DNA from: Sphagnum magellanicum
Taxonomy: Eukaryota; Streptophyta; Sphagnopsida; Sphagnales; Sphagnaceae
Direction of reading: 5' to 3'
DNA length: 64,000 nucleotides
Assembly: GCA_021904315.1 (NCBI GenBank)
Contig: CM038911.1
Span: 14,047,390-14,111,389, forward strand
How positions within the stretch are numbered: position 1 is the first letter of the stretch; each line of letters starts with the position of its first letter. The notes under the pieces were generated by a model. The model made no database searches, was not told the origin of the DNA, and worked only from the letters and a program-made list of their open reading frames with translations. Both the position numbers and the translations under genes were made by a program. This document shows, in pieces, positions 1,235-59,917 of the stretch.

Positions 1235-2464
1235 TTAGGCTGCTGCTGCAGTCCCAGCAGCAGCCACCACACGGTTCCGGTGAGAAGGGGCTCCAGAAGT
1301 TTTCTTCAGAGCAGCAACCAAACAATTCTCATGGCGCTCATCCAGCATGATTTGCTGCGATCGACACTCAGTACTGCAAAAGGCCTTATCCCCTCTGCAC
1401 AGCAGACAAAAAAAGGCCCATTGAAGATCAATCTATAGTACATCGCATTCTGAAGAGATGGTGATTCTGGAAAATTCTAGTTGCCATCCTGCAGACAAGC
1501 GGCAAAAACTTTCTGACAAGATGCTTGTTGGAGGTGAGGAGGAAGAGATGATGAGAACATACCTGTACATGTAGATGTCCTTGCCATCGACAAGATGTCT
1601 TTTGCAGAAATAACAGGCGTCCAAGAAATGAACTGCTGATGCTGCTGCTGCTGCTGCTACTGCATCAGGAACGACGACAACCTGCTGCGTCTTGAAGGAA
1701 GAAGAAGGTCGCAACAAGAAGGTGTCACGTTCGCCTTCCTCCGGATCTGGCTGCCGCAACCAAGCTACCATTGCACGACCTCCTTGTCCATCAGCAGCTC
1801 CAGCCAAGGGAGGTTGTTGAACACCACCTGAGAATCTGTGCTGTGACGGACGCCCGCTTTTGTGGTAAGAACCAGAGGAGTCTGGAACACGAAGAATAGG
1901 GATAGACATACTCTGCTTCTGTGCAGTAGTGCAGTAAGGATTCGGCCTTGAGTGAAGAATGGAGTCCGCCTTGATTGCAGCAGCAGCGGGAACGACATGA
2001 TGATGATGATGATGATGATTGCGCTGATTTCTCCTATCCACAATGTTGTGGCTCTTCAGTTCTTCCTGGACAACAGCAGTGTTGTTGTTCATGGCAGCCA
2101 CAATGCTCAATCCAACTCCTTCCACTACCTTCCTCTCCCGGGGCACAGAAAGCAGGCTTTCCAGACCTGATCGTTGCTGCAACGGTGGTGACGATGACGA
2201 CGACGACTTTGCGCTGCTGCTGCTGCTTCCGGGAGACGAGGGCTTCAAGCATCCATTGCCGGCGTTTTCAGGCAATGGCTTCGGATTGAAACCGATCACC
2301 AATCTGGGCGGAGGTGCAGTAGGTACTGGTTCCTTGACTGGTGTCGGCTTGAGCTTCTCTTTCGGATGTTCTGGTAGCGGCGAACACTCCTGCGTGAAGG
2401 ATACGGACTCGATCAATGACTCGCTTGAAGTGCGTCGGAGAGTGCGAGGTCTCTTTCCGGTCAT
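1235..2464 (-). CDS. FCS-like zinc finger (FLZ/DUF581) protein, 2 exons
   Basis: Exon 1 is 2464-1563 and exon 2 is 1394-1235, giving about 353 aa. The intron (1562-1395) has a GT donor and CAG acceptor, and the phase-2 join restores an Arg codon inside the zinc finger. The FLZ domain is complete at about residues 280-325: FLDACYFC (Cys284, Cys287), GKDIYMYR, then GDKAFCSTECRSQQI (Cys307, Cys311). The start at 2464 (MTGKRPRTLRRTSSES) is chosen because other FLZ proteins begin with a similar basic KRPR stretch. An in-frame ATG at 2698 would add 78 residues. The region before the finger is low complexity, with Ser, His, Ala and Gln runs. FLZ proteins are plant-specific and bind the SnRK1 kinase as adaptors in sugar, energy and ABA signalling; that role is taken from the family. 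The partner and location cannot be read from this sequence. Confidence 0.9.
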
Positions 2465-2911
2465 ATTCGTGCCGCTGGCGTCTCCTCCTCGCCCCCTGTC
2501 GTCTCCCAGAACAAATGTCTTCAAGAAGCGTTGATGATCGATCTCGAGCTTTTGCAGATGGATGCGGGCGTGTTCGTCGGCTTGCGACAATGACGAATGC
2601 CTAGCAAGAAGAATTCCTCCTAGCCCCGTAACCTGCGTGAGAAACTCTCGGAAAACTCTTATCGCGCTGCCAGATATGGAGGATAACGACGACGACAATC
2701 GAGACGTTAATGGAAGATGTCAAGGAGAGGAAATTGGATATCCTCTCTTGGAAACCGATGTCAAGAAAGCTTCATTTGCAGACAAACGAAGAAATATCTT
2801 ACTGAAGAAAAACGACAACGAACTCGTTTTCACATCCGTCTTCACCAAACGTACACACGAAGAGAAACACGCAATAATGTGACAGTCAGGCAACACACAA
2901 ATAAACAACCC

Positions 2912-2950
<39 letters not shown>

Positions 2951-3540
2951 ACTCTCTCTCTCTCTCTCCCTCCGCCAATGTCTCCTTCAATACAACGCCG
3001 CACAAAACACAAGATCTCTCAGTGGAGTACACACAAATGTATACGCACTCGACCAAAAACCAACACTGAAAAAAAAAAGCGAAACCAAACCTGAAGGATG
3101 CAAACACTGACGAAGAGCAACAAGGGTGGACAAAATTAAAAAATCCACGGTTACGATTCACAGTGACAAAAGAGACAATGAACAATAGAGGGGGTATGTC
3201 CGGCTAGCACACACGAAAACAAACACAAGAATGAGAGAGACAGAGACAGAGAGAGCGAGAGTGCACGCTATCGGACTTGCTTGCAATCGAAACCTTAAAA
3301 GCACAGCAACAGCGACGCTGAAAGCAAGCGAGAAATAGAAGAAGACGAAGAAGGAGCTTTGCAAGGGGGAGCAGACACACAACAACCTGGTCGGTACTTA
3401 ACATAGCCAGGGAGCAAACTCCTCCCCCAACCCCCCCCCCCCCCCCCCCCCCCCCCCACCCACCCACCCACCCGACCTACCAGGCAGCAACTAGCCGACT
3501 AGCTAGTGACTAGGGAACAGGGTTTTTTTTTGTTTTTTTT
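2465..3540. other. Upstream/5' UTR region of the FLZ gene with microsatellites
   Basis: This is the likely 5' UTR and promoter side of the minus-strand FLZ gene. A compound TC / AC / TC microsatellite lies at about 2910-2970, as is common in plant leaders. A poly-C run occupies 3431-3457 and is followed by CCCA repeats. I could not pick a confident TATA box. Confidence 0.4.
3431..3457. repeat. Poly-C tract
   Basis: An uninterrupted run of 27 C residues followed by four ACCC-type repeats. The exact length is likely unreliable in assembly. Confidence 0.9.

Positions 3541-6312: not shown

Positions 6313-6347
<35 letters not shown>
6313..6347. repeat. Poly-G tract
   Basis: Thirty-five consecutive G residues, with two further G-rich tracts at about 6604-6620 and 6966-6982. 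Such tracts can form G-quadruplexes, and their lengths are error-prone in assembly. Confidence 0.9.
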
Positions 6348-11538: not shown

Positions 11539-11671
11539 CACTACTAGAAATTTTGTCTTTTGCAACTTGTCTTATGCAACTAAAAAATCTCACATGCAAC
11601 TATTTTGGAGTTGCATGCGACATTTTTTAGTTGCATAAGACAAGTTGCAAAAGATAAAATTTCTACTAATG
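11539..11671. mobile_element. CACTA-type MITE (foldback, 133 bp) with 3-bp TSD
   Basis: The element opens CACTACTAGAAATTTT and closes with the inverted counterpart AAAATTTCTACTAATG. Only one base of the terminal CACTA is changed at the right end. The arms stay paired for about 50 bp (TTGCAACTTGTCTTATGCAA and its complement), leaving a short loop. Both ends are flanked by TAT (11536-11538 and 11672-11674), the 3-bp duplication expected of CACTA (En/Spm) transposons. It has no coding capacity, so it would have been moved by a transposase encoded elsewhere. Confidence 0.88.
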
Positions 11672-12232
11672 TATATGACTAAATATTTCATCAAATTTTG
11701 TATTTATTTGAATCATTTACAAAATATATTTGCAATTTGTAGTATACTAAAACACGTTTTTTTTTCACAAATGTATTATTTAATCATTTAATATCAATCA
11801 AAAATTGTAATTTCTTTTGACAATTGCATTATTTGGTAGTTGGATTACCTTATTTTGAGTATAATTTATCAAAAAATCTTTTAATATTGGCTTGGTGGTA
11901 ATAAAAAGTCACACAATTTTGAAAAATAATTGTTGTGAGAACATGTTTTGGCCATAATAATGTGCTTTCACCATTTGTTCAAAAAGTTCATATCCTTCTT
12001 CAAAAGATTTGTTATAAGTGGAGTGTCTATAACTAATCAACACTTATCTTATATATAAATTCACTTGGTCTTCCCGTCTGTCTGTGACGTGACGTTTTGC
12101 TACATAATCATTTTTTATGTTTCTGTTGCGGAACCGGCCATAGGGAAAAACATTTTCATCTGGAACTGCCACCCCCGGGAAACCCGTTTGATTTCTACAC
12201 AACTGCTTGCATGAGGTGTGTTTGCGTGTGTG

Positions 12233-12300
12233 CGTTTCTCTCTCTATGACTCTGTCTCTACTGCAAATTTGGCGTCGATTGATGATGCAGGTGATGGACA
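12233..12300 (+). repeat. Helitron internal direct repeat, copy 1
   Basis: About 65 bp ending in GATTGATGATGCAGGTGATGG. It recurs at 14431-14495 with few differences, including GACTCTGTCTCT and GCAAATTTGG. The two copies bracket almost all of the captured DNA in the Helitron. Confidence 0.85.
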
Positions 12301-12349
12301 TCCGGCAAATAGGAAATGCACAGAGTACACATGAGCGTTATCATCACGT

Positions 12350-12451
12350 TTTATGTTTGCAACATTAGATCGGTGTGAGGATATATTGTCAAAGCAGCAT
12401 TACATTGCAGGCAGTGAATTAACAGAATTTGATATTTGGTTGTTTGTGACT
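12350..12451 (+). pseudogene. Captured exon fragment of glutathionyl-hydroquinone reductase (ECM4/YqjG-type GST)
   Basis: One frame reads FATLDRCEDILSKQHYIAG followed by SELTEFDIWLFVT. This matches the C-terminal GST-like domain of plant glutathionyl-hydroquinone reductases (xi-class/ECM4/YqjG), where the block ends in TEADIRLFVTLIRFDEVY. The conserved Ala and Arg of that block are replaced here by Phe and Trp. The match stops after FVT, where the sequence becomes unrelated, so only about 33 codons are present. It has no start, no other domain part and no visible partner exons. It is best read as a gene fragment picked up by the Helitron that surrounds it, not as a working gene. Family enzymes reduce glutathionyl-quinones; no such activity is expected from this piece. 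Confidence 0.8.
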
Positions 12452-14430
12452 TCTTGCACGAGCGGTAGGCATACTTCAGGATTCAAGCGTGACTCCACAC
12501 TGCTTGCTCCATTGATTCACCCTTTCTTGCAAAGAAAGTGAAGATGAAACTTGCTGAGCCAGGGTAAGCTTCCAAACTCTTCTCAATTCACTATTGTCAT
12601 CAGACATAGCAAGAAGGAGCTCCAAGCACAATGCATCATATTTCCGTCTTCTTCTTTGACCAGTTTGCCATCCCTTTTTCTTCTCAGACAAACATGTAAG
12701 GAAAGTGTCTGTCCACAGAATTCTGGAGCCTCTTGCATTTGCATTGCAGAGGCTTTTCCATCAGAAGGTGGTTGATGTTGCAGCTCTTCAGGGAAATGAG
12801 GTAGCAAATTCTAACGGAGACAAACCATAGCGGTTTCAATGTCCTGATGCTTTTGATGCTTCCGCTACAAAATCTGTTGGATCATGTTATACACACATAG
12901 ATAGATATGGTTTGGATCTTGAATTTGACAACAGAGTTTGTTCTCTTCGATTTTTCAGGTTTCTGACTGGCCTTCATGTTGGAGAGACAAGCATAATTTG
13001 AAGAGACAAATGCATAACTTGCAGAGATCATTGCTACCATAGTAGCAAACACATCAACACCAGAGCAAGAGGCATCAGCACCAGAGCACACTTGAAGATG
13101 TCCAGTGTTACAAATTTTGAACCATTTAGGTATTCACAAACAAAGAATGCAGATGATGTTTTCTTTCCAAGTGTGAAATTCCTGACAGTAGGAGATGGTG
13201 ATCCACAACACAGGACACGTTTTTTTGAAAACTTTGTTAGGGTTTGTTGTTCACTGTCCTCATCCTAATCTGACAATTTCAAACTCAGATGTGAAGCCAG
13301 ACACAAACTTGCACCTTCATGGCAGAAATGAAATGGAGCTACAGTGCTCTTTAAGCCATGGTGTTGGTTCATGTGTTTTGCAGGCACCAGTCAAATCCCT
13401 GTTTTGGAAGGGGGATTGAAAGTATCTTTGAACTTCCTTTGAACATCTGCTCCAATCTATCCACATTTGTCTTCTACATTGGACCTCAGCTCACTGTAGG
13501 TATGCTGCTGCTGCTCGTGCCCCTCAATTCTCTCAGTGACTTTCAGCATTGTATGTGGAAATTTCTTTCAAAAGGAGAAAATGTGCATGGAAAAAGAATG
13601 GAACATAGAGTTTTTGATCTGGGATTTGATTGCACATTCAGTTTACTTTGTCAAGGAAATTGGAAAGAACAATGCAGTTGTTTTGTTTTTTCAAACTCCA
13701 ACTTATCAATGGAAATAGGCATTGGAAAAATAACCTGAGAAAGAGCAATTGTAGACCTGGAAGAATGTAGTAATAGTAATGGAGGTTTGAAGACAATTGG
13801 CTGTGCAAGTGAATGGGTGAGCAAGGTACAATGGGTTTACTAATCTTTCAAAGACATGCATGGTGGACCAATGTGTAGTAGGAACAGCTCATGGGGTTTT
13901 GTGATGAGCTCCAGGGAATAGGACACTAAGGATTTTCTTGAAGGCAACATCATTCCGATCAAAGGTAGCATCACAACCAACAATACTAGTAGGCCTGGGA
14001 TGGAGGGTGGAGAGGCTTGGGCAGGAGTCAGGAGTCTAGGGAGGGTGAAGGATCTTGAGCATGAGTTATGAATGAAGGAAGAGAGCTATGTTAATGTTAG
14101 TAGCAGGCCTGAAAAATGACCTACATTGTTGTCTTGAGGGAAGCATAAATTGATCATAGTTGGAGGTAGGATGGCTGGCTTTAAGTAGAAGCTTGAGTCT
14201 AGACAAATCAACTTCCCTTGTTCTCTCTCTCTCTCTTCTTTTGTTTAGGAGGCAAGGGGAAGCAGGAAGAGACAACATTGGATAAAATCTGAAGGGGGAA
14301 AAAAAAATCATAATCTGTGCTCCATTTTTGGATGAAATTTCATGTCTTGGCAATGAAAGAAAAGCCAGTGTGAGTCATACAAAGGATTTTTTTGGGAAAA
14401 AAAAATGGTTCAAAGTGATTTTGAAGACAA

Positions 14431-14495
14431 CGTTTCTCTCTTTGACTCTGTCTCTGTTGCAAATTTGGTGTCGATTGATGATGCAGGTGATGGAC
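14431..14495 (+). repeat. Helitron internal direct repeat, copy 2
   Basis: Second copy of the 12233-12300 sequence, in the same orientation. After it, about 200 bp lead to the Helitron 3' hairpin and CTAG. Confidence 0.85.
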
Positions 14496-14702
14496 CTCTT
14501 CACCTATCTCCCCCCCTTCAACACAACAACCCTCATTAAACCAATGACGAAGAGGAAGAGGAGGCCCCTTGGGAGGGCCCGCACATCTGCCGGAACCGTC
14601 TTGCTCGGGAGGGGCACGATCTCGGTTTAAAGGAAATAGATACGGTTTAAATAAATAAACTGGGGGACTTCACAGTGACCAAAGGTCACGGGTTCCCACT
14701 AG

Positions 14703-17700
14703 TTAATTATAAATGAGAATAACCATCATGTAACTCTAAAGGTAAAAAAACAAGACCAAGAACTTGGATTAGATATGATCATTTTACCCACCCATACATC
14801 TTATGCCCTTTACCCCTTGGATGTTTCTTGTTTTAAGACATTCAAAACAACATTTAGAAAAGTTACAAATGTAGTAATGGTGAAAAACAACTACATGGAA
14901 TTAAACAATATCACATTAGTTGAATGGGTGGACTAGGCCTTTGACCATTCATTCACAAAAAATAAATTAGGTATGTATGTAAGGTTGCAAATATTTGGCC
15001 TTATATCTGCAAGGCAAAAGACAATGGGATTCAACCTTCAAATATTTGCAAACAACACAAAACGATGAAGCTGATGAAGATGATTTACACATCATATGAA
15101 CAATATGATCAAGAATATCAATGTGAAGATGAATTAACTATTATAAAATTCTTCCATATACATGTGCATTAATTCATCACATAATGATAAAAGACCCACT
15201 TAATAACATGTTATAAACTAATTGATGTCACTATGTAGATATGCCTTTTAGCCCTACAATGATAAAGAAAAGGCTAGAAGAAATCAATGTGGTAAACTTA
15301 GATGACCCTACTAGTTCTGATCAACCATAGGAAAAATAAATTTCTCCAAATTTAATGTAAGAATCAATGAACTTCCACAACCTTTTATCATTATTTCATT
15401 TGCATGTAAGATAAGCCAAAGGCAAATAACCATTAATTGATTATTTGTAGTCATATGTTGTGATTTTTGTACAATATCTAAGTATATTACATAAAAAAAC
15501 AATGGGTAAGGCAACTATAGAAAAAACCTAGAAAAACAAAACAAAAGGAGAAAGGAGGAAAAAAGAACCAACAAGGTAGTAGATTGTTTGGTTGTGGAAG
15601 AATGGGTAACAAAATGTGCAATTGAAAGACATGCAAGAGTTGCGTTGTTACAACTTGGTTTACATTGGTTGTTAAGGAAGTTAAATATTGTTTCCATGAA
15701 AGTTTCCAAACATGTTTATGAAGCATAGGGGTTAGGGTACAAGGCTGTTAACCTTGGGGTTATAATAGAACTTCAAAAAGAAGTTAGGAATCAAGTAAGG
15801 CTAGGATGCTCATTGCATGAGGGCACATTGTAGCAAGCATGCATCATTTTATGAAGTGATACAAATGAAACAAGGGGGAAGGGGGAGGATGGGGTAATAA
15901 AAGTATCAACAACAAATGTGATGGTTGTGAATAGGAGGATGGCAACATCGTGAAAAGAACATGAAGAATAGAATGAACAAGACAAAGAAGATAGGAAAAA
16001 GAGGACAAATAAAATAGGAAAAATGGGATGAAAAAAATAAGAATATGACGAATAGAATAGGAAAAACATTACAAAAACAAAGAAGGCATCAAGAAAAGCA
16101 CCAATAAAACCATCGCAAAGAGGAAGAGGACATTAGCAAAGGCACCATCAAAACCACTACAAAGAAGAAGAAGGCACCAACAAGACCATTGCAAAAAGGA
16201 AGAAAACATCAGTAACACCACCAACAAGACTATTGTGAAATGGATGAAAGCATTAGCAAGACCACCAACAAAGACCATTGCAAAAAGGAAGAAGGTACCA
16301 TTGATACCACTAACAAGACCATCACAAAGAGCAAAAGAGCACCCAAAAGGCACAGGCAAAACCATTGTGAAGAGGAAGAGGGCACCAATAGGACCATCAC
16401 GATGAGGAAAAAGGTGCTAGCAAGACCACAAGCAAAACCATTATGAAGAGGAAGAGGGCATCAACAAAGGCACCATCAAGACCATCACTAAGACCACAAT
16501 GAAGAAGAAGAAGGCATCAACAATACCATCGCAAAGAAGAAGGAGGTGCTAAGAAGACTACTATGACAAGGAAGAAGACACCCATTACAACTTTTTTTTT
16601 GTAGTCTAAAGACAATGGACCATCAATGGATAAATGCAAAACTTTTGATACACTAAGCATATGGATACTGAGCTATCTACCACAACATGACACTTGTGTT
16701 GAGTTTATGTTGTAATAGTTATGCAAGTTCCACATGATCAAGCTAATTTTGCTACAAGGTGGCATTAATAAGGTGGTATAATATTTGTCCTTTTTAAGTG
16801 TCATAATGGCATCAAATTGAAGTGTCAATTTCAAGATCTTTGCAATTTCTATTTGTTTTTAAACCACACTATGTACATGGGTTTTTTTCCTCCAAATTTC
16901 TCAAGTAGGCTCAGTGGCAAGGTTCTCTGAAATGGATCTAGCAATATAAATGCCTTACGTTAAAATTCAACAACCTTTCATGATAACTACATGTTATGTC
17001 AAATTTTGATGTATTGCAAATTATTTTCCATGTTGGCCAATTGAAAGTACATCATTGCAATGCCCTTAAACATTATGTAATCAAAACAACATGCCACAAA
17101 ATGTATCTTTGCCATGTAAGTTCAAAGCTACAATTGTGTTACAGTAACACTTGAACAATATTAAACATGTGATAATATATATTGCATGAGTGGTGAAAAC
17201 TGTTATTATTATCATTTTTCAGTTAAAAACTCTCTCTTATTTCGTCCAATTTCTAAATTCTATTATATATCATCATTTAATACCTTTCCTAGCTTTACCA
17301 AAAGGTAAGGTATTAGGCCTGTGTCAAAATATATTTCTTTCATAAAACATTTTCAATTGTTTTTCCCAGAGGATTTAATCTTGTGTTGAACACATTGACA
17401 CTTAATCTAGTGAAAAAAAAGGACGTTACATCATTAACTTCTTTAAGAATCAGTTCACAAATGAATACAGTTCTCACTGTTTGAAAATAATTATCATTTT
17501 TCACTATTCAGTATTGGATAGAAGTAGTGCTCATCTAAAGAGCTGGAACTTGGAACCTTCAGAAAAAGGAGTTTAAAAAAAAAACTGCATTTGGATACCT
17601 TGTAAATCATGGATATCCTAAACAAATAGAGCAATTTGATTTCTGATCTGCATTATTTGTGCATCACACCAGTTGACAAGCCAGTCTAGTACAGGTTGCA

Positions 17701-18713: not shown

Positions 18714-21442
18714 TTAAGAGGATTTGGGCTTGTGTACAAAATTAAACCCTTTCTCGATGCTCCCTTGCAACTCTGCTTTCATCTTTTCCAATGCCTCCCT
18801 GCAAAGAAGATTTAACAACATGAGAAATCTTTCAGGCTGCACCCATTTTAAACTGCCATGCATGCATGCAGACAATACAGGCCACCAATTTGCACACATA
18901 CATGACCGAACACAGGACTCACCTTTCAAAGCTGTTCAGTGGACCAAGAGGAAAAATCTCCTCAGCTCCAGTTCGCCCAAGCTGAACCTTGCTAGCGAAG
19001 AAAGGAAACTCTGTCACCTGTCAAGAATCTCATACTGTTACAGAAGGCAATTTAAGACTTGACACAACTGAAAATTCTTCAAATGAACCTGATGTATCAG
19101 TAAACAATAAGATATAAGACAACAGAAAAACATTCCCACACTAAAGAAGAGACTTCAATGTGATTTCCAACCTCTGATGCAACATAAGCACACTCTACAA
19201 TGCCAGTTTCTCCCTGTAACGCACGAAGGCATGCCTCTCCAAACTTTGCTGCAGCATATGCCTGCAATCACAAATGTTCATTGCATTGGTGTCCAGTTCT
19301 TGATTGAAGCAAAAGGAGGGAATAAGAGCTTCCAAACTTCCTACAAAAAAGGATAAGCTGCATTGTCGATATTACTATACAGTCTGCAGGTATTCAATAG
19401 TCTGTTCTTTGACACTCTAATGTTTCAAAATCTGTCAGTTTCAGCAAGACCAAAATCTAACATGACAAGAATGAGTCCAGTCATAACTGTGTGATCATCA
19501 CCCACAAAGTGTCAGAGCATGATCTTCATCATGATTAGCAGCAACAAGCTGCCATGACTCCACAAACTCCACCAACTCCAGACGGTGAGTGTAGATTCGT
19601 TAGTAACAAGCTGTCCAAAACTTTTGAGCAAAATATTATATGAACCTCCTAGATGAAGAGCACTTACCATTGACAAAGTGGCTGAGCCTGTTCCTGCCTT
19701 TGCCTACACACAGGCAATGCAACAGCCAAGTCAATTTACAGAAACAAAATAGCTCTAGTCCAGCATAAATTTCAAACATGCTCTAGAGGGTGGGAGAAAT
19801 TACCTCAACCACCTCTGTGCCCCCATTTTGAATACGATTTGTCAGGTACTCAACCTCCTTACTGTTGAATGAGAACGGAGGACTGGTCTGGTTTCACAAG
19901 TATACAATTCAGCACACATGCACAGTAAATCAATCAATAATGCACCAATGAACCATATGACTATATATTGCCAAGCAGGAATACACTGAGTACACATGTC
20001 AATGTGATGATCTGACCTGTGACAAGAGTGGAAGAATGGTGATGCCAGCATGTCCACCTACTACTGGCACATTTACCTCCTTAGGATCCACACCGATCAC
20101 CTCTGCCTGTACAACCCTCGAATTCACAAATTTGCAGAATGATGTGTCCAGATGTTCAGACCAAGAAATATGTAAAGACATTCAAAGTGAACCATGTGTG
20201 ATGAACACCCAACCCACATGAGTAAATTCAACAAAAAAAGGCAGCAGTAAGACCCCTGAAACAAGTCAAAAATGTCAAGGGCTGGATGCTGACAAATGTA
20301 TGGATCATGTTACAAACTTGTGACTGGTGCAGTATCACACATGTCAGAAGGAGATTGTGCAGATACAGAATCTTTAGGAAACCAAGTCTAGGGCCAGACA
20401 GACAGAGGTTACCACAAACGTGTTGGCTCGCATGACATCCAGGGTAGTAACGCCAAAGAGACGTCTGGGGTCATATACACCTGCAATCTTCAGCACCTCA
20501 GCAGCAATGGGCACAGTGGAATTCACAGGGTTGCTGATGATGTTGATTATTGCCCGAGGACAATGCTTTGCAACGCCTTCAATCAAGGTGCGCACAATTC
20601 CAGCATTGATGTTGAACAAGTCGTCACGTGTCATTCCTGGCTTCCTTGGGACTCCAGCCGGAATTATGACTAAATCCATCCCATCCAGTGCAGGTCCCAA
20701 CTGATCCTTTCCCAGATAACCTCGCACCTTTACCCCACAAACCATATGTGCCAATTAACAAAATTCACCAATTCATCAAAACAAAGAGAGACCAAGGATA
20801 TGCTGGTGCAAGGAAGCAATTTGCATCAGATTGTGAAAAAAACATCTGGAAACAAAAATGATTCACATACCACAGCAGAAGTATTGGTATGACTCAGATC
20901 TGCAGTGACTCCAGGAGTGTTGAAAACATCATACAAATGCAGGGTAGACACCAGGGGATTTATCTTGAGCAGCAAACTTAAGGGTTGTCCAATGCCACCT
21001 GCTGCCCCCAAAACTGCCACTTTAAACCCTGGAGCTGCGCCTCGTGCCCTTGTAAGCTCTCTCTCCACCCCTCCCATCTGCAGCCCCTGGATGGAAAGAA
21101 ATGCCATTTCATAAAAAACAAGGAAAAAAAATGAGCATGCATGCACGCTGCCATAACCCCTAAGTAGAAAGATAGATCATCATGAGAAAGATAGATGAGA
21201 GACACATCATCACAGAACTCCCATACGCAAATAAAGTCCACACACAAGTGTGTAAACAGAATTTTGCAAAATTTCGCGAGATCCCAGCATCGCAAAATTG
21301 GCCCAAATCTAATGACAGACATGGTTGGATAAAGAGGAAGAAGAAATTGCACCTGTGGAGATGATAACATGTGGGAGGAGATGCGAGCCAGACGCGTCTG
21401 GGCCTTCAGACCAGAGTACTGCTGCTGCTGATGCTCCTCCAT
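18714..21442 (-). CDS. PMDH: Peroxisomal/glyoxysomal NAD-malate dehydrogenase, 9 exons
   Basis: Exons (minus strand): 21442-21353, 21086-20871, 20727-20413, 20106-20017, 19887-19804, 19703-19668, 19261-19172, 19017-18923, 18798-18714. Every join keeps frame with GT-AG borders and gives 366 aa, the usual length for glyoxysomal MDH. The enzyme interconverts malate and oxaloacetate with NAD(H), supporting beta-oxidation, the glyoxylate cycle and photorespiration. Visible features: a PTS2-like nonapeptide RLARISSHM (17-25), the dinucleotide-binding loop GAAGGIG (57-63), substrate arginines in [13 protein letters not shown] (130, 136), NPVNS, catalytic Asp in TTLDVMR (about 199) and catalytic His in VVGGHAG (about 226). 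The PTS2 has HM where the consensus is HL. The C-terminus KPKSS is not a PTS1. Intron 6 contains a dispersed repeat (about 19455-19594). The closest family alternative, mitochondrial MDH, lacks a PTS2. Confidence 0.96.
19455..19594. repeat. Dispersed repeat C, copy 1 (in MDH intron 6)
   Basis: Aligns to 53013-53153. Shared blocks are AACATGACAA, CAGTCATAAC, CACAAAGTGTCAGA/CACAAAATGTCAGA, and GTGAGTGTAG/GTGGGTGTAG at the end. Orientation is the same in both copies. Confidence 0.7.
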
Positions 21443-39709: not shown

Positions 39710-42249
39710 GTCATGGATTCTCATCATTATATTTCTAGTGTTGGAGAGGTAGCTGTTCCATAACAAAGAACTGAACTTGATGTTCAACTGCAGGTCTCCA
39801 AACGGGATTGAGTGTGATCACAGACTGGAGGCTAAGTTCCCTCGAGAAGGCTAAGTTCTCAACCTTCCTAAGGTTTCCAACAAAACCACAATCTGTCAAT
39901 GCTGAATGTTTTGATTGATGGTTCTGGTTGAAAAACCAAATTCCACATCCTTTCTCCAAAGCTAACATGAAGGACAATAGATCAGCTTTACAGTCACCCA
40001 AATGCTTGACTAATGCTTTCTATGATATGTAGGAGATTTCAACCTTGGATCTGGGTTTGATGTGCAAGACAAAACTTGGTTCAGTTTTGGAGGAGCTAGT
40101 ACCACAGGTAGCATTGCCAGAAAGCAAAGTCTCTTCTGGTGCCTCCGGTCAACTCAGTGCCAAATCATGGACATAAGAGCAGACTCAGTGATCAACCAAA
40201 ATGAAAAGTTGCCAGAGAATTTTTAAAACAAGTCCTTGGGTGAGGATGCACTCCTCATAGCATTGAAGTAGGTATTTGTTCATGGATCAAAAAGCAAAAA
40301 TTGTTACTTGTTATGAACCTATTGGCTCACCACAAGTTTGCCAAAAGTATCAGTGGTGAACATTTTCAAGATAGAAGTTCTCAGAGTGAAATGCAAAAAC
40401 CCAAGGCATGTTTCCTAGCTCGAGGGTTTCCTTGTTCCTCGAGATTGAACAAAATGGGCAAAAGTTCTGAGATATGACTAGGATGAGTTAAGCATAAAAT
40501 TAAGATAGACAATCTTTGGATGCTTGATAAAGTCAGTGAAATAGACTGGTTCAGCTACATGCACTGAGAGATGCATATTTCCAGACATGTTGTGAGCAGT
40601 TCTTTGAAATATGAACTTCCTCAATTCTTTTAATTGAATTGAGAAAATTTCAGGCATCATGATACAAACCCCTCATGTTTCAAGTTTCTGTTGCATTTCT
40701 GTAAGTAATTGAATCCACCGCTATGCTGGTTAACACTCAAGAGGCTGCTGATAAACAAAGAGTCAATCATATCCTCGTTCAAGCTACTTTGGCTACATTC
40801 TAGAACCTATTGTCTAAATATGGCGATTTCAATTTTTCTTCTTCACAATGTGGCAATTTTGGGCCTTTTTCTTCTTTTCCCACAAAAAGCCTTTGTATCT
40901 GTTGCACTGGCTTTTTTGGGGTTGCCAGGATGGGAAAATTCACCAAAAACAAAAACATTGAAGCATGCAATATTTGCAACCTGAACTGCTTAGGTACTAC
41001 TGCAAACAAGAGACACAGTCATTGTAAACAGAAAAAAGGGTGAAAACAGATCCTAGTCCATCTTGAATGAACATTGTTGTATAAAGCATAAAAACCTAAG
41101 CAATTTTTATCTATTGTAGTTGTAGTTGCCTACACCAAAGAACCCAATTTGTTTGATGTTGCAGTAGACACTCTAGACTTAAAGCAAGCAGACAGTTGGA
41201 TAGTTGATGTGGTATAGTGTTTTCTGTGTTGGTATTAATAACATCCATTAGCTGGATGTGCTTTTGGTTTAGTGTTGAAGGCAATGAAATTTGATGGGTT
41301 TATAAATGTTTAACACATTTTAATAGATATTGAGACCATGAATTTTTGGGTATAATGCAGTATGTATTGTGCTACATTTTAACATGTGTTTATATTTCTA
41401 CATTTGCAGAAACTTTTGTGACAGTAGTTTAGGGTTATAGTCCAGGGGAAAGTGGGATTCTAAGGGGTGCTTCCGATGTTGGTAGTTTGGGTTGATTTGG
41501 AAATGCAAGCAGTTGTTGAGGCACTAGCATGTAGAATGTAGGTTGATCATTACAGGGTTGAAAGACCAGCATGTCTGCAATGGAGTCTTGGAGCAGTCAT
41601 TACAATTTAATTACAATTGTCATAAAACAATATTCTATAACATGCATATCACTATAAGACTATGGCAATGGTATGGAGTTCGACAAAACAATACTTTATC
41701 AATAACTGAAAATATAGATTAAACAAAAACAACAATTTAAGTACACAAAATATTATGCACCTACAAATACAAATCCATACCCACATTTGATGTCTTGGAT
41801 TTCCTTGGCTACATCTAAATGTGCATGTGCTTAGTTGTTTTGTCCTTTAGATGATTCTATTTTTGAACAAGGGGCTTTAGGATTCCTCTATGCCTTCTAA
41901 AAGTGTTATCACCAAGAGCAGATGGAAACAAAGGGTTTATGTCAGGGTGTTCAAAACCAGTAATCCCTTTAGCTATCATGTCTTATTGTTTGCATTTCAA
42001 CACCTTCAACCCTAAAAGTAAATGTAAATGCAACACAGGAATTTCAATGGATGTGGTTTTTGTGTCATGAAATACTTGGTCAATGAAGTCGTTTAGGTCA
42101 ATTGTTTTGACCTAGGCAATAGCGGTTGTCATCTCCAAGCTATTAATGTCTTCATTTTTATCTTCAATGTCATTTTTTTATTAAGGAGGCCATTAGAAAC
42201 CATTTGTCTAGTTGATGGAGGACCCTTGTTTACTCCATGGAATGTGCTT
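38756..42249. other. Intergenic stretch with repeats
   Basis: Contains a (CT)n microsatellite at about 39674-39710 and, at 40781-40865, a copy of the interior of the TIR element at 3547-4090. No gene was recognised. Confidence 0.4.
40781..40865. repeat. Copy of the interior of the 3.5-4.1 kb TIR element
   Basis: TTTGGCTACATTCTAGAACC and TAAATATGGCGAT here correspond to TTTGGCTACATGCTAGAACC and TAAATATGGTGAT at 3629-3668. A later (A)ATGTGGC block follows in both. Confidence 0.65.
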
Positions 42250-43870
42250 GTATCCCTAACAATGGCAAAGTCTAGAATGTTAAGGTGTAGGATTTTGAAT
42301 ACCTTCATGACATGTTGGCATGTAATTCCTTGTTCTGCAAGTAGGCAATTGCATTGTGGCCACTCATATGATGGAGCGTGAATGGTCCATACTTTGGGTG
42401 TGTGGTTGATGGATGCAATAAATGCAATGTCCTCGCCATCATGACATAATAAGACATTGGAATCAAGAATATCTCAAGCCCTTAGCATAAGTGAAGCAAC
42501 AATGCCTTTTTGTTTTTCACACACCTGAAAATCTTGCATTACACACCATACTAGTAGTGAGTAATAACACCTCCAACAAGATGGAAAATCAACCAATCCA
42601 TTATACGTCCAATAAATTGTTCTTTGGAAGAACAAAAGATTTGTTTCATGTTGCTATGGAATGATTCCATAGCTGCATTGGTGTCATGCCCTGCATGTGG
42701 AATGTTACAATTACCAACACACCACATTATCACCTTGTGTGTCCAAAGGTCTTTAAGGTATGCAATGAATTGAAATGCATTGGGGTAATTGGTTGGCATA
42801 ACGTCTATTTGTAGTTGTGCCCACAAAATAGGATCATGATCCAATGGAATGCTCATGAATACATGATCTTCCCCAAAGTAGATAATACTTTTGTTCAATC
42901 TTTTGTACTTGCAATTTTTTTTACAACATTTTTTCCCCATGCTTTGTCCACATGCCACAAACATTAAAAAAATTTGGCCCTTGGCCAAACATTGCTGCAT
43001 GGGAAAACATCAACTGTAGAAATTAGGATTTGTAATAGTCTAATAAAATGTCTATGAATGTCAATATGGCATGAAATATACCATGCTTTGATGAAAAATA
43101 ATGCTATGCAAAATAAACATAATTTGTGGCAAAATATGTTGTGCAACAAAGTATGATTTACCACACTATTTTGTTTTGCAACAAACTATTCACTATAAAA
43201 CACAATCAATAAACATGGAATTATAGTAGGTACATTTTAGGAAATCAAATTTCAACACATTGATTTCAGCTTGAGCATTGTCAACAAGGATAACATTAAG
43301 CATCCAATTGCTTGGCATACATTTTGATAGCGCTCGAAGAACTAGGTCCAAGTCACTTTCTCAACTTTTTCCAATGACATGAATGCAATTGGTATCCCAT
43401 TTTGTCATTCATCAAACACCATTAGGGTGTACAAAGGGTACCACAAATAACATGAAGCCAACATTAGTTACAATGTTATGGAACACATTAATTATGGGGC
43501 ATTTCATACAATAGCAAGAGTGGTGTACCTTGCTTTGATTAGTACCAAATGTTGCATCAAAAAATATTGAATTACCTTGCCCAATTTTTTGCAAAATTTC
43601 TAATTGCCATGGAGTTTGGATTCCCAATGTGAACAAAATGTCATCTTGGTTCATGAATTGATGTCCATAGGGGCATGTTGAAAATTTTAAAAACCAAATC
43701 AGGATTTTCTAGAACCCACATATTGACATTGATGGGGTCCTTGTGGTGTTTTTGCCATTGTTCATCAACTCACATTTTTGCCAAGTTTCTCACATTGGAC
43801 AGGAGAACAACAGTGTTTCGGGTTACAAGTTCATTTTTCAATGCCATCTTTCTAACATGTGTTTTGTGAT
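42250..43870 (-). pseudogene. Decayed MULE-type transposase with SWIM zinc finger
   Basis: Reading the minus strand downward, I see: about 43800-43680 a frame ending MWVLENPDLVFKIF; after a frameshift near 43670, QDDILFTLGIQTPWQLE and FFDATFGTNQ (first DDE-type Asp); near 43300, in another frame, ILVDNAQAEINVL (second Asp); at 43000-42551 an open frame with ILWAQLQIDVMPTN and HDTNAAMESFHSNMK (candidate Glu). Then VWTIHAPSYEWPQCNC and GITCQHVMKVFKIL follow at about 42400-42270, a C-x-C ... C-x-H SWIM finger. This order is that of Mutator-like transposases. Several frame changes and stops show it is dead. Such proteins cut and paste DNA in the nucleus. No terminal repeats were found, so the element's edges are not defined. 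Confidence 0.8.
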
Positions 43871-49060: not shown

Positions 49061-49697
49061 CCACCTCTCGTGTCGTGTCGTGTCGTGTCGTCTCTCTCTC
49101 TCTTTCAGTCTCTTTGTTTCTTTCTCATCACTTTTCCTTCTTTTTTTTGCTGTTGTTGTCTGCATCACTCTATAATTATTTTCCTTTTGTTTTTCACCGC
49201 CATTTTCATCTGCACAAATAGAGTTCCCTTTCTGTTGCTGCTTCCTTACTCTTGAGCTTTCTTGTACCGTTTCCTTGCTTTCAACACTTTCATAACAAGA
49301 CGCCACCGTATTTCTTAAAAGCCAAAAAGCAAGGAAGAGCGAGAGAAAGAGACTGAGAAACACTCGGAGAGAGAGACACACACACACACACAGACTTCCT
49401 CCCATACTGTGATGTGATTACCAGGGAGAAAACAAATTCTTCTGTGCTTCAGTTGACAATGAATGTTCAGGACCGCAGGAATTTGGAACTGCTAGCTTCT
49501 TTTAGTGGCGGAGGACGAGATCTTGGTTCAGCAGCTTGAGTTTTATAGGGTAAAAACGGTGTGACAATAGACTGAGAAAGAAAAAACAGAAATAAGGAAG
49601 GTGCGATTTACAGAGACACGAGAACAACAGGTACAAATCCAGCGCTGGATTGTGTCCAACTGAGGACACGGACGCGGACTGAAAAAGTTCATAATAA
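49061..49697 (+). promoter_or_regulatory. Likely leader/promoter region of the STAY-GREEN gene
   Basis: The segment just upstream of the STAY-GREEN start includes GTCGT tandem copies (about 49070-49090) followed by a CT-rich run (49090-49160), and a (GA/CA)n run at about 49365-49392. CT-rich tracts are frequent in plant leaders. A transcription start and TATA box could not be fixed. Confidence 0.35.
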
Positions 49698-59406: not shown

Positions 59407-59917
59407 TCCTATATATTAATTCACTACGTCTATCAGTCAATCTGTCTGACGGGGGTTTTGGGGGGTGGGGGAGGGAGAAGCCGGTGAAGCAGCGGGCGAC
59501 CGGTGTCAGTCTGTGACGGGGGTTGGACCACCACAGTTTCCGTGTACAAAGTGTCTCCACAAAGCATTGCAGCCGTCCGAAGAGTCGGAATGACGGTCGG
59601 ATCGCATCCCTTTCCCACCGCACCAGAGGCGGATATAAAAACCTTCCCTTCCCCCCCCACTACTGAAAGAACCAGCGGTTATATAAAGGAGCGTGTTTTC
59701 GGAAATTTTCAAAACTTTCCGGAACCAAGGTTCAAAATGTCAAAACCAGGGTTTTGGGTTTTCTCACATCGGGTAAGGGAGTAAATACCCAGACTGATAA
59801 CCTGAGGGTACACACAGCTGGTTCTGATACCCGCACAATGTCGGTCGAGACCACTGCGCGTTCGGGGTGGCTAGAGTGGCGTAACCATGGGTGTCCGAAG
59901 GTCACGGGTACCACTAG
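59407..59917 (+). mobile_element. Short non-autonomous Helitron (511 bp)
   Basis: The 5' TC end (TCCTATATATTAATTCACT, preceded by A at 59406) matches 20 of the first 24 bases of the Helitron at 12047. The 3' end is CTAG (59914-59917), followed by T. A stem GTGTCC-GAA-GGTCAC (59891-59905, one mismatch) lies 8 nt before CTAG, and GGTCACGGGT is shared with the first element. The interior is clearly GC-richer than the flanks and includes two TATA-like motifs (TATAAAA 59634-59640; TATAAAG 59682-59688). No coding exon was recognised inside it. Confidence 0.85.

What the first reader, a model, noticed from the sequence alone, without database searches (positions are those of the whole stretch)
12047..14702. 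Readable Helitron with all terminal hallmarks
5' TC after A, 3' CTAG before T, and a perfect 6-bp stem (GTGACC/GGTCAC) 9 nt before the end are seen directly. The element has no Rep/helicase, so an autonomous partner should exist elsewhere in the genome. Its ends provide probes to define the family.
Basis: partly seen in the sequence, partly recalled or inferred. Interest (0 to 1): 0.72.

Follow-up and report, generated by a model that had tools for sequence, protein, structure and literature searches.

The report
Plant Helitron carrying a gene fragment
This is a plant jumping gene of the well-known Helitron type, with no transposition enzyme of its own and a piece of a host detoxification-type gene inside it; a shorter relative in the same window makes the identification solid, and it is ordinary of its kind.

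Summary
Element A (12047-14702, 2656 bp) begins TC after A12046 and ends CTAG before T14703, with a perfect 6-bp stem 9 nt before CTAG. The strongest evidence is new: element B (59407-59917, 511 bp), also A|TC...CTAG|T, shares both ends with A (23/30 and 24/30 bases); the match starts at A's first base and stops at its last. Neither end arose in 100 resampled windows (limits set after seeing B). Both elements are richer in G+C than their flanks. No Rep/helicase domain was seen in the reading frames scanned. A carries a captured piece of a Xi-class glutathione S-transferase gene (12353-12457; E 4.9e-6), next to a possible but unproven RPA1 piece. So A is a non-autonomous, gene-capturing Helitron: a new member of a known kind. 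A ~70-bp internal direct repeat may record how the cargo was taken up; this is untested. B's predicted 3' fold differs from A's. Copy number, empty sites and the autonomous partner stay open: the genome search, asked 14 times, never answered.

The parts
12046..12046 (+). host A of the A^T insertion site, 5' side
12047..14702 (+). element A: non-autonomous Helitron, 2656 bp, G+C 0.421 against 0.250 (left 500 bp) and 0.304 (right 500 bp)
12047..12071 (+). 5' terminal block beginning TC, shared with element B (21 of 25 bases, counted from the alignment)
12233..12302 (+). left copy of internal direct repeat (core 64 bp at 12239-12302, 92% identical to the right copy)
12276..12353 (+). possible fragment of an RPA1 (replication factor A) N-terminal coding region; weak, unproven (Pfam Rep-A_N E 0.027, 14.9 bits against cut-off 26.7)
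12353..12457 (+). captured fragment of a Xi-class glutathione S-transferase (glutathionyl-hydroquinone reductase) gene, 35 codons
12458..14430 (+). rest of the cargo, origin unknown; no convincing protein match
14325..14403 (+). 79-bp stretch of the cargo 76% identical to 40872-40949 on the opposite strand: dispersed repeat or shared source
14431..14498 (+). right copy of internal direct repeat (core 14435-14498)
14675..14689 (+). 3' subterminal hairpin GTGACC-AAA-GGTCAC
14699..14702 (+). 3' terminal CTAG
14703..14703 (+). host T of the A^T insertion site, 3' side
59407..59917 (+). element B: second Helitron of the same family or a close one, 511 bp, A59406|TC...CTAG|T59918, G+C 0.526 against 0.298 and 0.308 in the 500-bp flanks
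59891..59905 (+). B's counterpart of A's hairpin, GTGTCC-GAA-GGTCAC, with one mismatch; the predicted fold of B's end does not form this stem but a longer bulged one

Best explanation
A is a non-autonomous Helitron of the canonical type (TC...hairpin...CTAG, inserted between A and T), very probably in a land-plant nuclear genome, that has captured host gene pieces, at least one from a Xi-class glutathione S-transferase gene. It would be moved in trans by the RepHel (HUH nuclease plus helicase) protein of an autonomous relative that recognises the shared ends: nick at A|TC, peel off one strand with helicase action, pause at the hairpin, nick after CTAG, join into a circle, insert into another A^T site. 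Shown here: the ends, the A/T flanks, A's hairpin, the lack of a Rep/helicase domain in the frames scanned, a second element with the same ends, and one gene fragment. Inferred from the literature: every catalytic step, the partner's existence, and how the capture happened.
For: Terminal hallmarks at the stated positions. Element B: A 1-39 matches 59407-59445 and A 2629-2656 matches 59891-59917, same strand, from A's first base and to its last; B also sits in A|...|T. Identity 23/30 in the first 30 bp and 24/30 in the last 30. Blastn up to E 1 lists no other match of A inside B. 0 of 100 resampled windows hold either end at that similarity, while the window with A masked holds one of each, as a pair. 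G+C steps at both elements. No Helitron Rep or PIF1 helicase family in 61 ORFs of A (E up to 0.1) or in 249 other ORFs of the window (109 at E up to 0.001; 140 at E up to 0.01). Gene fragment: ORF 12335-12538 matches glutathionyl-hydroquinone reductase 4uss_A at E 4.9e-6 over 35 residues (18 identical by my count of the printed alignment), and all 11 PDB sequences listed up to E 10 are glutathione transferases or this reductase or its bacterial relative yqjG; tblastn in plasmids matched 14 records, the 5 listed all annotated as glutathione S-transferase. Mechanism by analogy with Helraiser (PMC4778049, passages).
Against: Only two elements, from one window, sharing only their ends. Each end match alone has E 0.14 and is outranked by an unrelated weak match (A 167-198 at 49398, E 0.041), so the case rests on the pairing and the exact termini. 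Over 270 bp the 3' sides align no better than shuffles (38.0 against mean 33.6, max 63.0). A's fold is not exceptional (z -1.72); B's 3' end folds differently (z -0.72, 38 of 200 shuffles as good). HelitronFinder's high-quality maize patterns match nowhere in the window, and its medium 3' pattern hits three places, none in A or B. The GST ORF did not reach Pfam's cut-off (GST_C_2 15.3 bits against 24.9) and had no NCBIfam match. No empty site seen.
Confidence: 0.94

Rival explanations
1. Composite origin (a refinement, not a denial): transposition began at a short (~460 bp, B-sized) Helitron, read through its lost 3' end across ~2.1 kb of host DNA, and stopped at the 3' end of a downstream sibling. 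The internal direct repeat is then the part both siblings shared.
For: ~70-bp direct repeat, 64-bp core 92% identical, starting 193 bp from the 5' end and ending 204 bp before the 3' end; the outer parts with the repeat counted once make 460 bp by arithmetic, close to B's 511. The right part has G+C 0.504 against 0.408 in the middle. Sequence take-up by read-through was shown for Helraiser (PMC4778049, passages).
Against: The left part (0.441) barely differs from the middle. No match of the repeat in B up to E 1. The possible RPA1 piece begins inside the left repeat copy, and the right copy keeps its first codons, so the repeat may simply be captured gene sequence duplicated during capture or repair. 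No short ancestor seen.
Confidence: 0.25
2. The internal repeat comes from the captured gene DNA: a stretch with an intron end and exon start was copied twice, by two captures or by a templated duplication during repair.
For: The repeat ends in a splice-acceptor-like stretch (by eye) followed by the start of the weak RPA1-like reading frame; the right copy reads the same first codons and then diverges.
Against: The RPA1 assignment is weak: E 0.027 in one of 61 ORFs is expected by chance, and the PDB search listed no RPA (one sequence, thyroid hormone receptor, E 0.48). The donor locus is unseen.
Confidence: 0.4
3. The hallmarks are a chance coincidence in A+T-rich plant DNA.
For: A CTAGT with a hairpin arises at 0.09 per window by chance; TC after A is trivial.
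Against: Element B with both ends, in the right order and orientation and exactly terminated; G+C steps at both elements.
Confidence: 0.02

Closest known systems
Plant non-autonomous, gene-capturing Helitrons (maize HelA/HelB and others, rice DHH_Mothra)
   Same: 5' TC, 3' CTAG, insertion between A and T, palindrome about 10 nt upstream of the 3' end, A+T-rich 3' flank, no RepHel gene, gene fragments inside (features as described in PMC2267711 and PMC2575219, passages; PMC4683698, background section and passages). The AA between A's palindrome arms resembles HelA-type ends.
   Different: The ends do not fit the HelitronFinder high-quality patterns for maize. Mothra has two blocs built of repeats, one with 20% G+C; A has G+C 0.421 and only one short tandem array, 2.4 copies of 21 bp at 12979-13027.
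Helraiser / Helibat1 (bat)
   Same: TC/CTAG termini and a palindrome 11 nt upstream of the 3' end that acts as a termination signal (PMC4778049, passages).
   Different: Helraiser is an autonomous animal element; A has no transposase seen, and the end sequences were not compared letter by letter.

Membership tests
Helitron (canonical) | 5' TC terminus | tested here: met
   12047-12048 and 59407-59408
Helitron (canonical) | 3' CTRR, usually CTAG | tested here: met
   14699-14702, and the end of B at 59917
Helitron (canonical) | insertion between A and T | tested here: met
   A/T flanks at both A and B
Helitron (canonical) | no target-site duplication (empty-site comparison) | not tested
   no empty site available; genome search unanswered
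Helitron (canonical) | subterminal 3' hairpin | tested here: met
   A: perfect 6 bp. B is weaker: the same stem has a mismatch and is not the predicted fold
Helitron (canonical) | dispersed copies sharing ends, homology stopping at the termini | tested here: met
   one further element, B, within the window only; genome-wide not answered in 14 calls
Helitron (canonical) | RepHel in the autonomous partner | not tested
   none in the window ORFs scanned; genome search unanswered
A and B in one Helitron family (rule of 80% identity in the last 30 bp, as used in PMC5714489, passage) | 80% identity over the last 30 bp | tested here: inconclusive
   24 of 30 bases identical with gaps in the alignment; 24 of 31 columns, 77%
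Maize HelA-type Helitrons | HelitronFinder 5' and 3' high-quality patterns (PMC2267711, passage) | tested here: not met
   no match anywhere in the window

The most novel reading that the evidence does not exclude
A is a readable record of multi-step capture: a short Helitron took up pieces of two host genes end to end (a possible RPA1 piece and a Xi-class GST piece) and either read through into a downstream sibling or duplicated captured DNA, leaving the ~70-bp internal repeat as the scar.
Probability: 0.3. Interest if true: 0.35.

Novelty: new member of a known kind. Interest (0 to 1): 0.2.

Why it matters
It gives well-defined ends for a Helitron family in this plant, two exemplars, and probes for its autonomous partner and copy number. 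A captured gene piece and an internal repeat in one element make its capture history testable by ordinary genome searches. Gene capture by plant Helitrons as such is well known.

Tried and rejected

Third copy in the window: with up to five mismatches the 19-base 5' pattern gave, besides A and B, five places with 4-5 mismatches; two of these begin TC, but after C or G, not A. The two 3' patterns gave only A and B.

Viral contigs: the 3' pattern had no match; the 5' pattern had one, L001, where TC does follow A, but there is no 3' pattern within 3 mismatches in the 7,966 bases held. Taken as chance.

Cargo: Pfam on 61 ORFs at E up to 0.1 gave six families. I first wrote these off as chance; when I traced them, the GST_C_2 match proved real and I raised gene capture accordingly. 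Of the 61 ORFs, 30 were rescanned singly: SOR, GST_C_2, Flg_bbr_C and Rep-A_N lie below their cut-offs; the DmmA-like_C and zinc_ribbon_6 matches were not located. PDB searches of six other pieces gave nothing convincing: no match for the hand-spliced peptide (35) and ORFs 58, 74, 75, 76; six weak matches, E 0.2-0.67, for ORF 12548-12772 (77). NCBIfam on seven ORFs: one weak match, E 0.098.

An internal older 3' end in A: one weak candidate at 12844 (5-bp A+T-rich stem), rejected.

Print: six end fragments searched as text gave 3 papers, each holding GGTCACGGGTTC only; by title they concern a citrus cultivar and chloroplast markers and were not opened. The topic searches were for context and do not test whether these ends are in print.

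Outer stems appear in the predicted folds of A and B, but two sequences cannot show covariation.

Full report
What was checked. A12046 precedes TC; CTAG ends at 14702 and T14703 follows; GTGACC-AAA-GGTCAC lies at 14675-14689 with nine bases between it and CTAG. Alone this is suggestive, not decisive: a CTAGT with a perfect G+C-rich stem of 6-8 bp 6-12 nt upstream is expected 0.09 times per resampled window and is found once. The fold of the last 43 nt is only somewhat better than shuffles (z -1.72; 16 of 200 as good).

A second element. Comparing A with the window at E up to 1 gave self-matches, simple-repeat matches, several weak short matches, and two of note: A 1-39 at 59407-59445 and A 2629-2656 at 59891-59917, same strand. 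Reading that place shows a 511-bp element B, A|TC...CTAG|T. Identity is 23 of 30 in the first 30 bp and 24 of 30 in the last 30. The best local alignments cover the first ~54 bp and the last 28 bp, and blastn lists no other match of A inside B. Globally aligned over 260-270 bp, the 5' side scores above all 300 shuffles (53.5 against max 51.5), the 3' side does not (38.0 against mean 33.6, max 63.0). Each end match alone has E 0.14, and at least one unrelated match scores better (A 167-198 at 49398, E 0.041). Together, in order and exactly bounded, they are convincing: 0 of 100 resampled windows held either end at that similarity, while the window with A masked holds one of each, as a pair (limits set after seeing B). 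No third copy was found.

Against. B's counterpart of the hairpin has a mismatch, and its predicted fold uses other pairings (z -0.72). The maize HelitronFinder patterns miss both elements.

Borders. A has G+C 0.421 against 0.250 and 0.304 in the 500 bp on its sides; B 0.526 against 0.298 and 0.308.

Content: no transposase. 61 of 61 stop-to-stop ORFs of A of at least 30 aa were scanned with Pfam at E up to 0.1, with no Rep or helicase. Outside A, 109 ORFs of at least 80 aa (E up to 0.001) and 140 of 62-79 aa (E up to 0.01) gave lactate/malate dehydrogenase, Staygreen, FLZ zinc finger, a retroviral-type SH3 domain, a DDE_1 endonuclease piece and two marginal matches, but no Helitron Rep or PIF1 helicase. 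Shorter exons could be missed, and no known RepHel was run as a positive control. Staygreen and FLZ point to a land plant (recalled); the species is unknown to me.

Content: captured gene. ORF 12335-12538 matches Xi-class glutathione transferases: best 4uss_A, glutathionyl hydroquinone reductase, E 4.9e-6, residues 7-41 (window 12353-12457); all 11 PDB sequences listed up to E 10 are glutathione transferases, this reductase, or its bacterial relative yqjG. Tblastn in plasmids found 14 records at E up to 1 (best 3e-3), the five listed annotated as glutathione S-transferases. The frame ends soon after, so this is a fragment. Directly upstream on the same strand, 12276-12353 matches Pfam Rep-A_N (RPA1 N-terminal domain) at E 0.027, 14.9 bits against a cut-off of 26.7. 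To my recall it reads like RPA1, but the PDB search listed no RPA, and one such E-value in 61 ORFs is expected by chance. If real, it is a host gene piece or a relic of the RPA gene that many plant Helitrons carry (PMC4683698, abstract, background and passages). The rest of the cargo gave nothing convincing.

Internal repeat. A ~70-bp direct repeat (12233-12302 and 14431-14498; 64-bp core, 59 of 64 identical) brackets 2.1 kb. Counted once, the outer parts make 460 bp, about B's size, which fits a composite of two siblings. But the RPA1-like frame starts inside the left copy, and the right copy keeps its first codons, so duplicated captured DNA fits as well. I lowered the composite reading to 0.25 for that reason. 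The short ancestor could not be sought.

Working. In Helraiser, the transposase cuts single strands at the TC end and at the CTAG end, circles form, and the 3' hairpin acts as a termination signal; loss of the hairpin increases take-up of flanking DNA (PMC4778049, passages). A would be mobilised in trans in this way. None of these steps is shown for A. [quoted passage not shown]

Known or new. The features, gene fragments included, are those of ordinary plant Helitrons (PMC2267711, PMC2575219, PMC4683698; passages or sections; PMC3288121, title and start of abstract in a listing). Whether A and B are one family under the 80% rule (PMC5714489, passage) is on the line. A text search found no Helitron paper with these end fragments, which is weak evidence, since sequences are seldom in text.

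Not done. The own-genome search was asked 14 times and not answered; copy number, partner, donor genes and empty sites stay open.

Noticed in passing
11539-11671: Foldback element just upstream of A: two 63-nt arms, 92% complementary, 7 nt apart; looks like a small MITE.
   Followed up: no
59407-59917: Second, shorter Helitron sharing both ends with A; not part of the finding as given.
   Followed up: yes
12353-12457: Captured Xi-class glutathione S-transferase gene fragment inside A.
   Followed up: partly
14325-14403 and 40872-40949: 79-bp stretch of A's cargo has a 76% identical relative on the opposite strand about 26 kb away.
   Followed up: partly
3431-3473 and 6313-6347: Long homopolymer-like runs: a C-rich run of 43 (80% matches) and a G run of 35 (100% matches).
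   Followed up: no
42129-43009 (-): Two open frames that look by eye like a MULE-type transposase remnant; the Pfam scan at E up to 0.001 listed no such family.
   Followed up: no
20374-21176 (-) and 1433-2719 (-): Malate-dehydrogenase-like exons (placed by eye; Ldh_1_N is in the scan list) and an FLZ zinc-finger ORF.
   Followed up: partly
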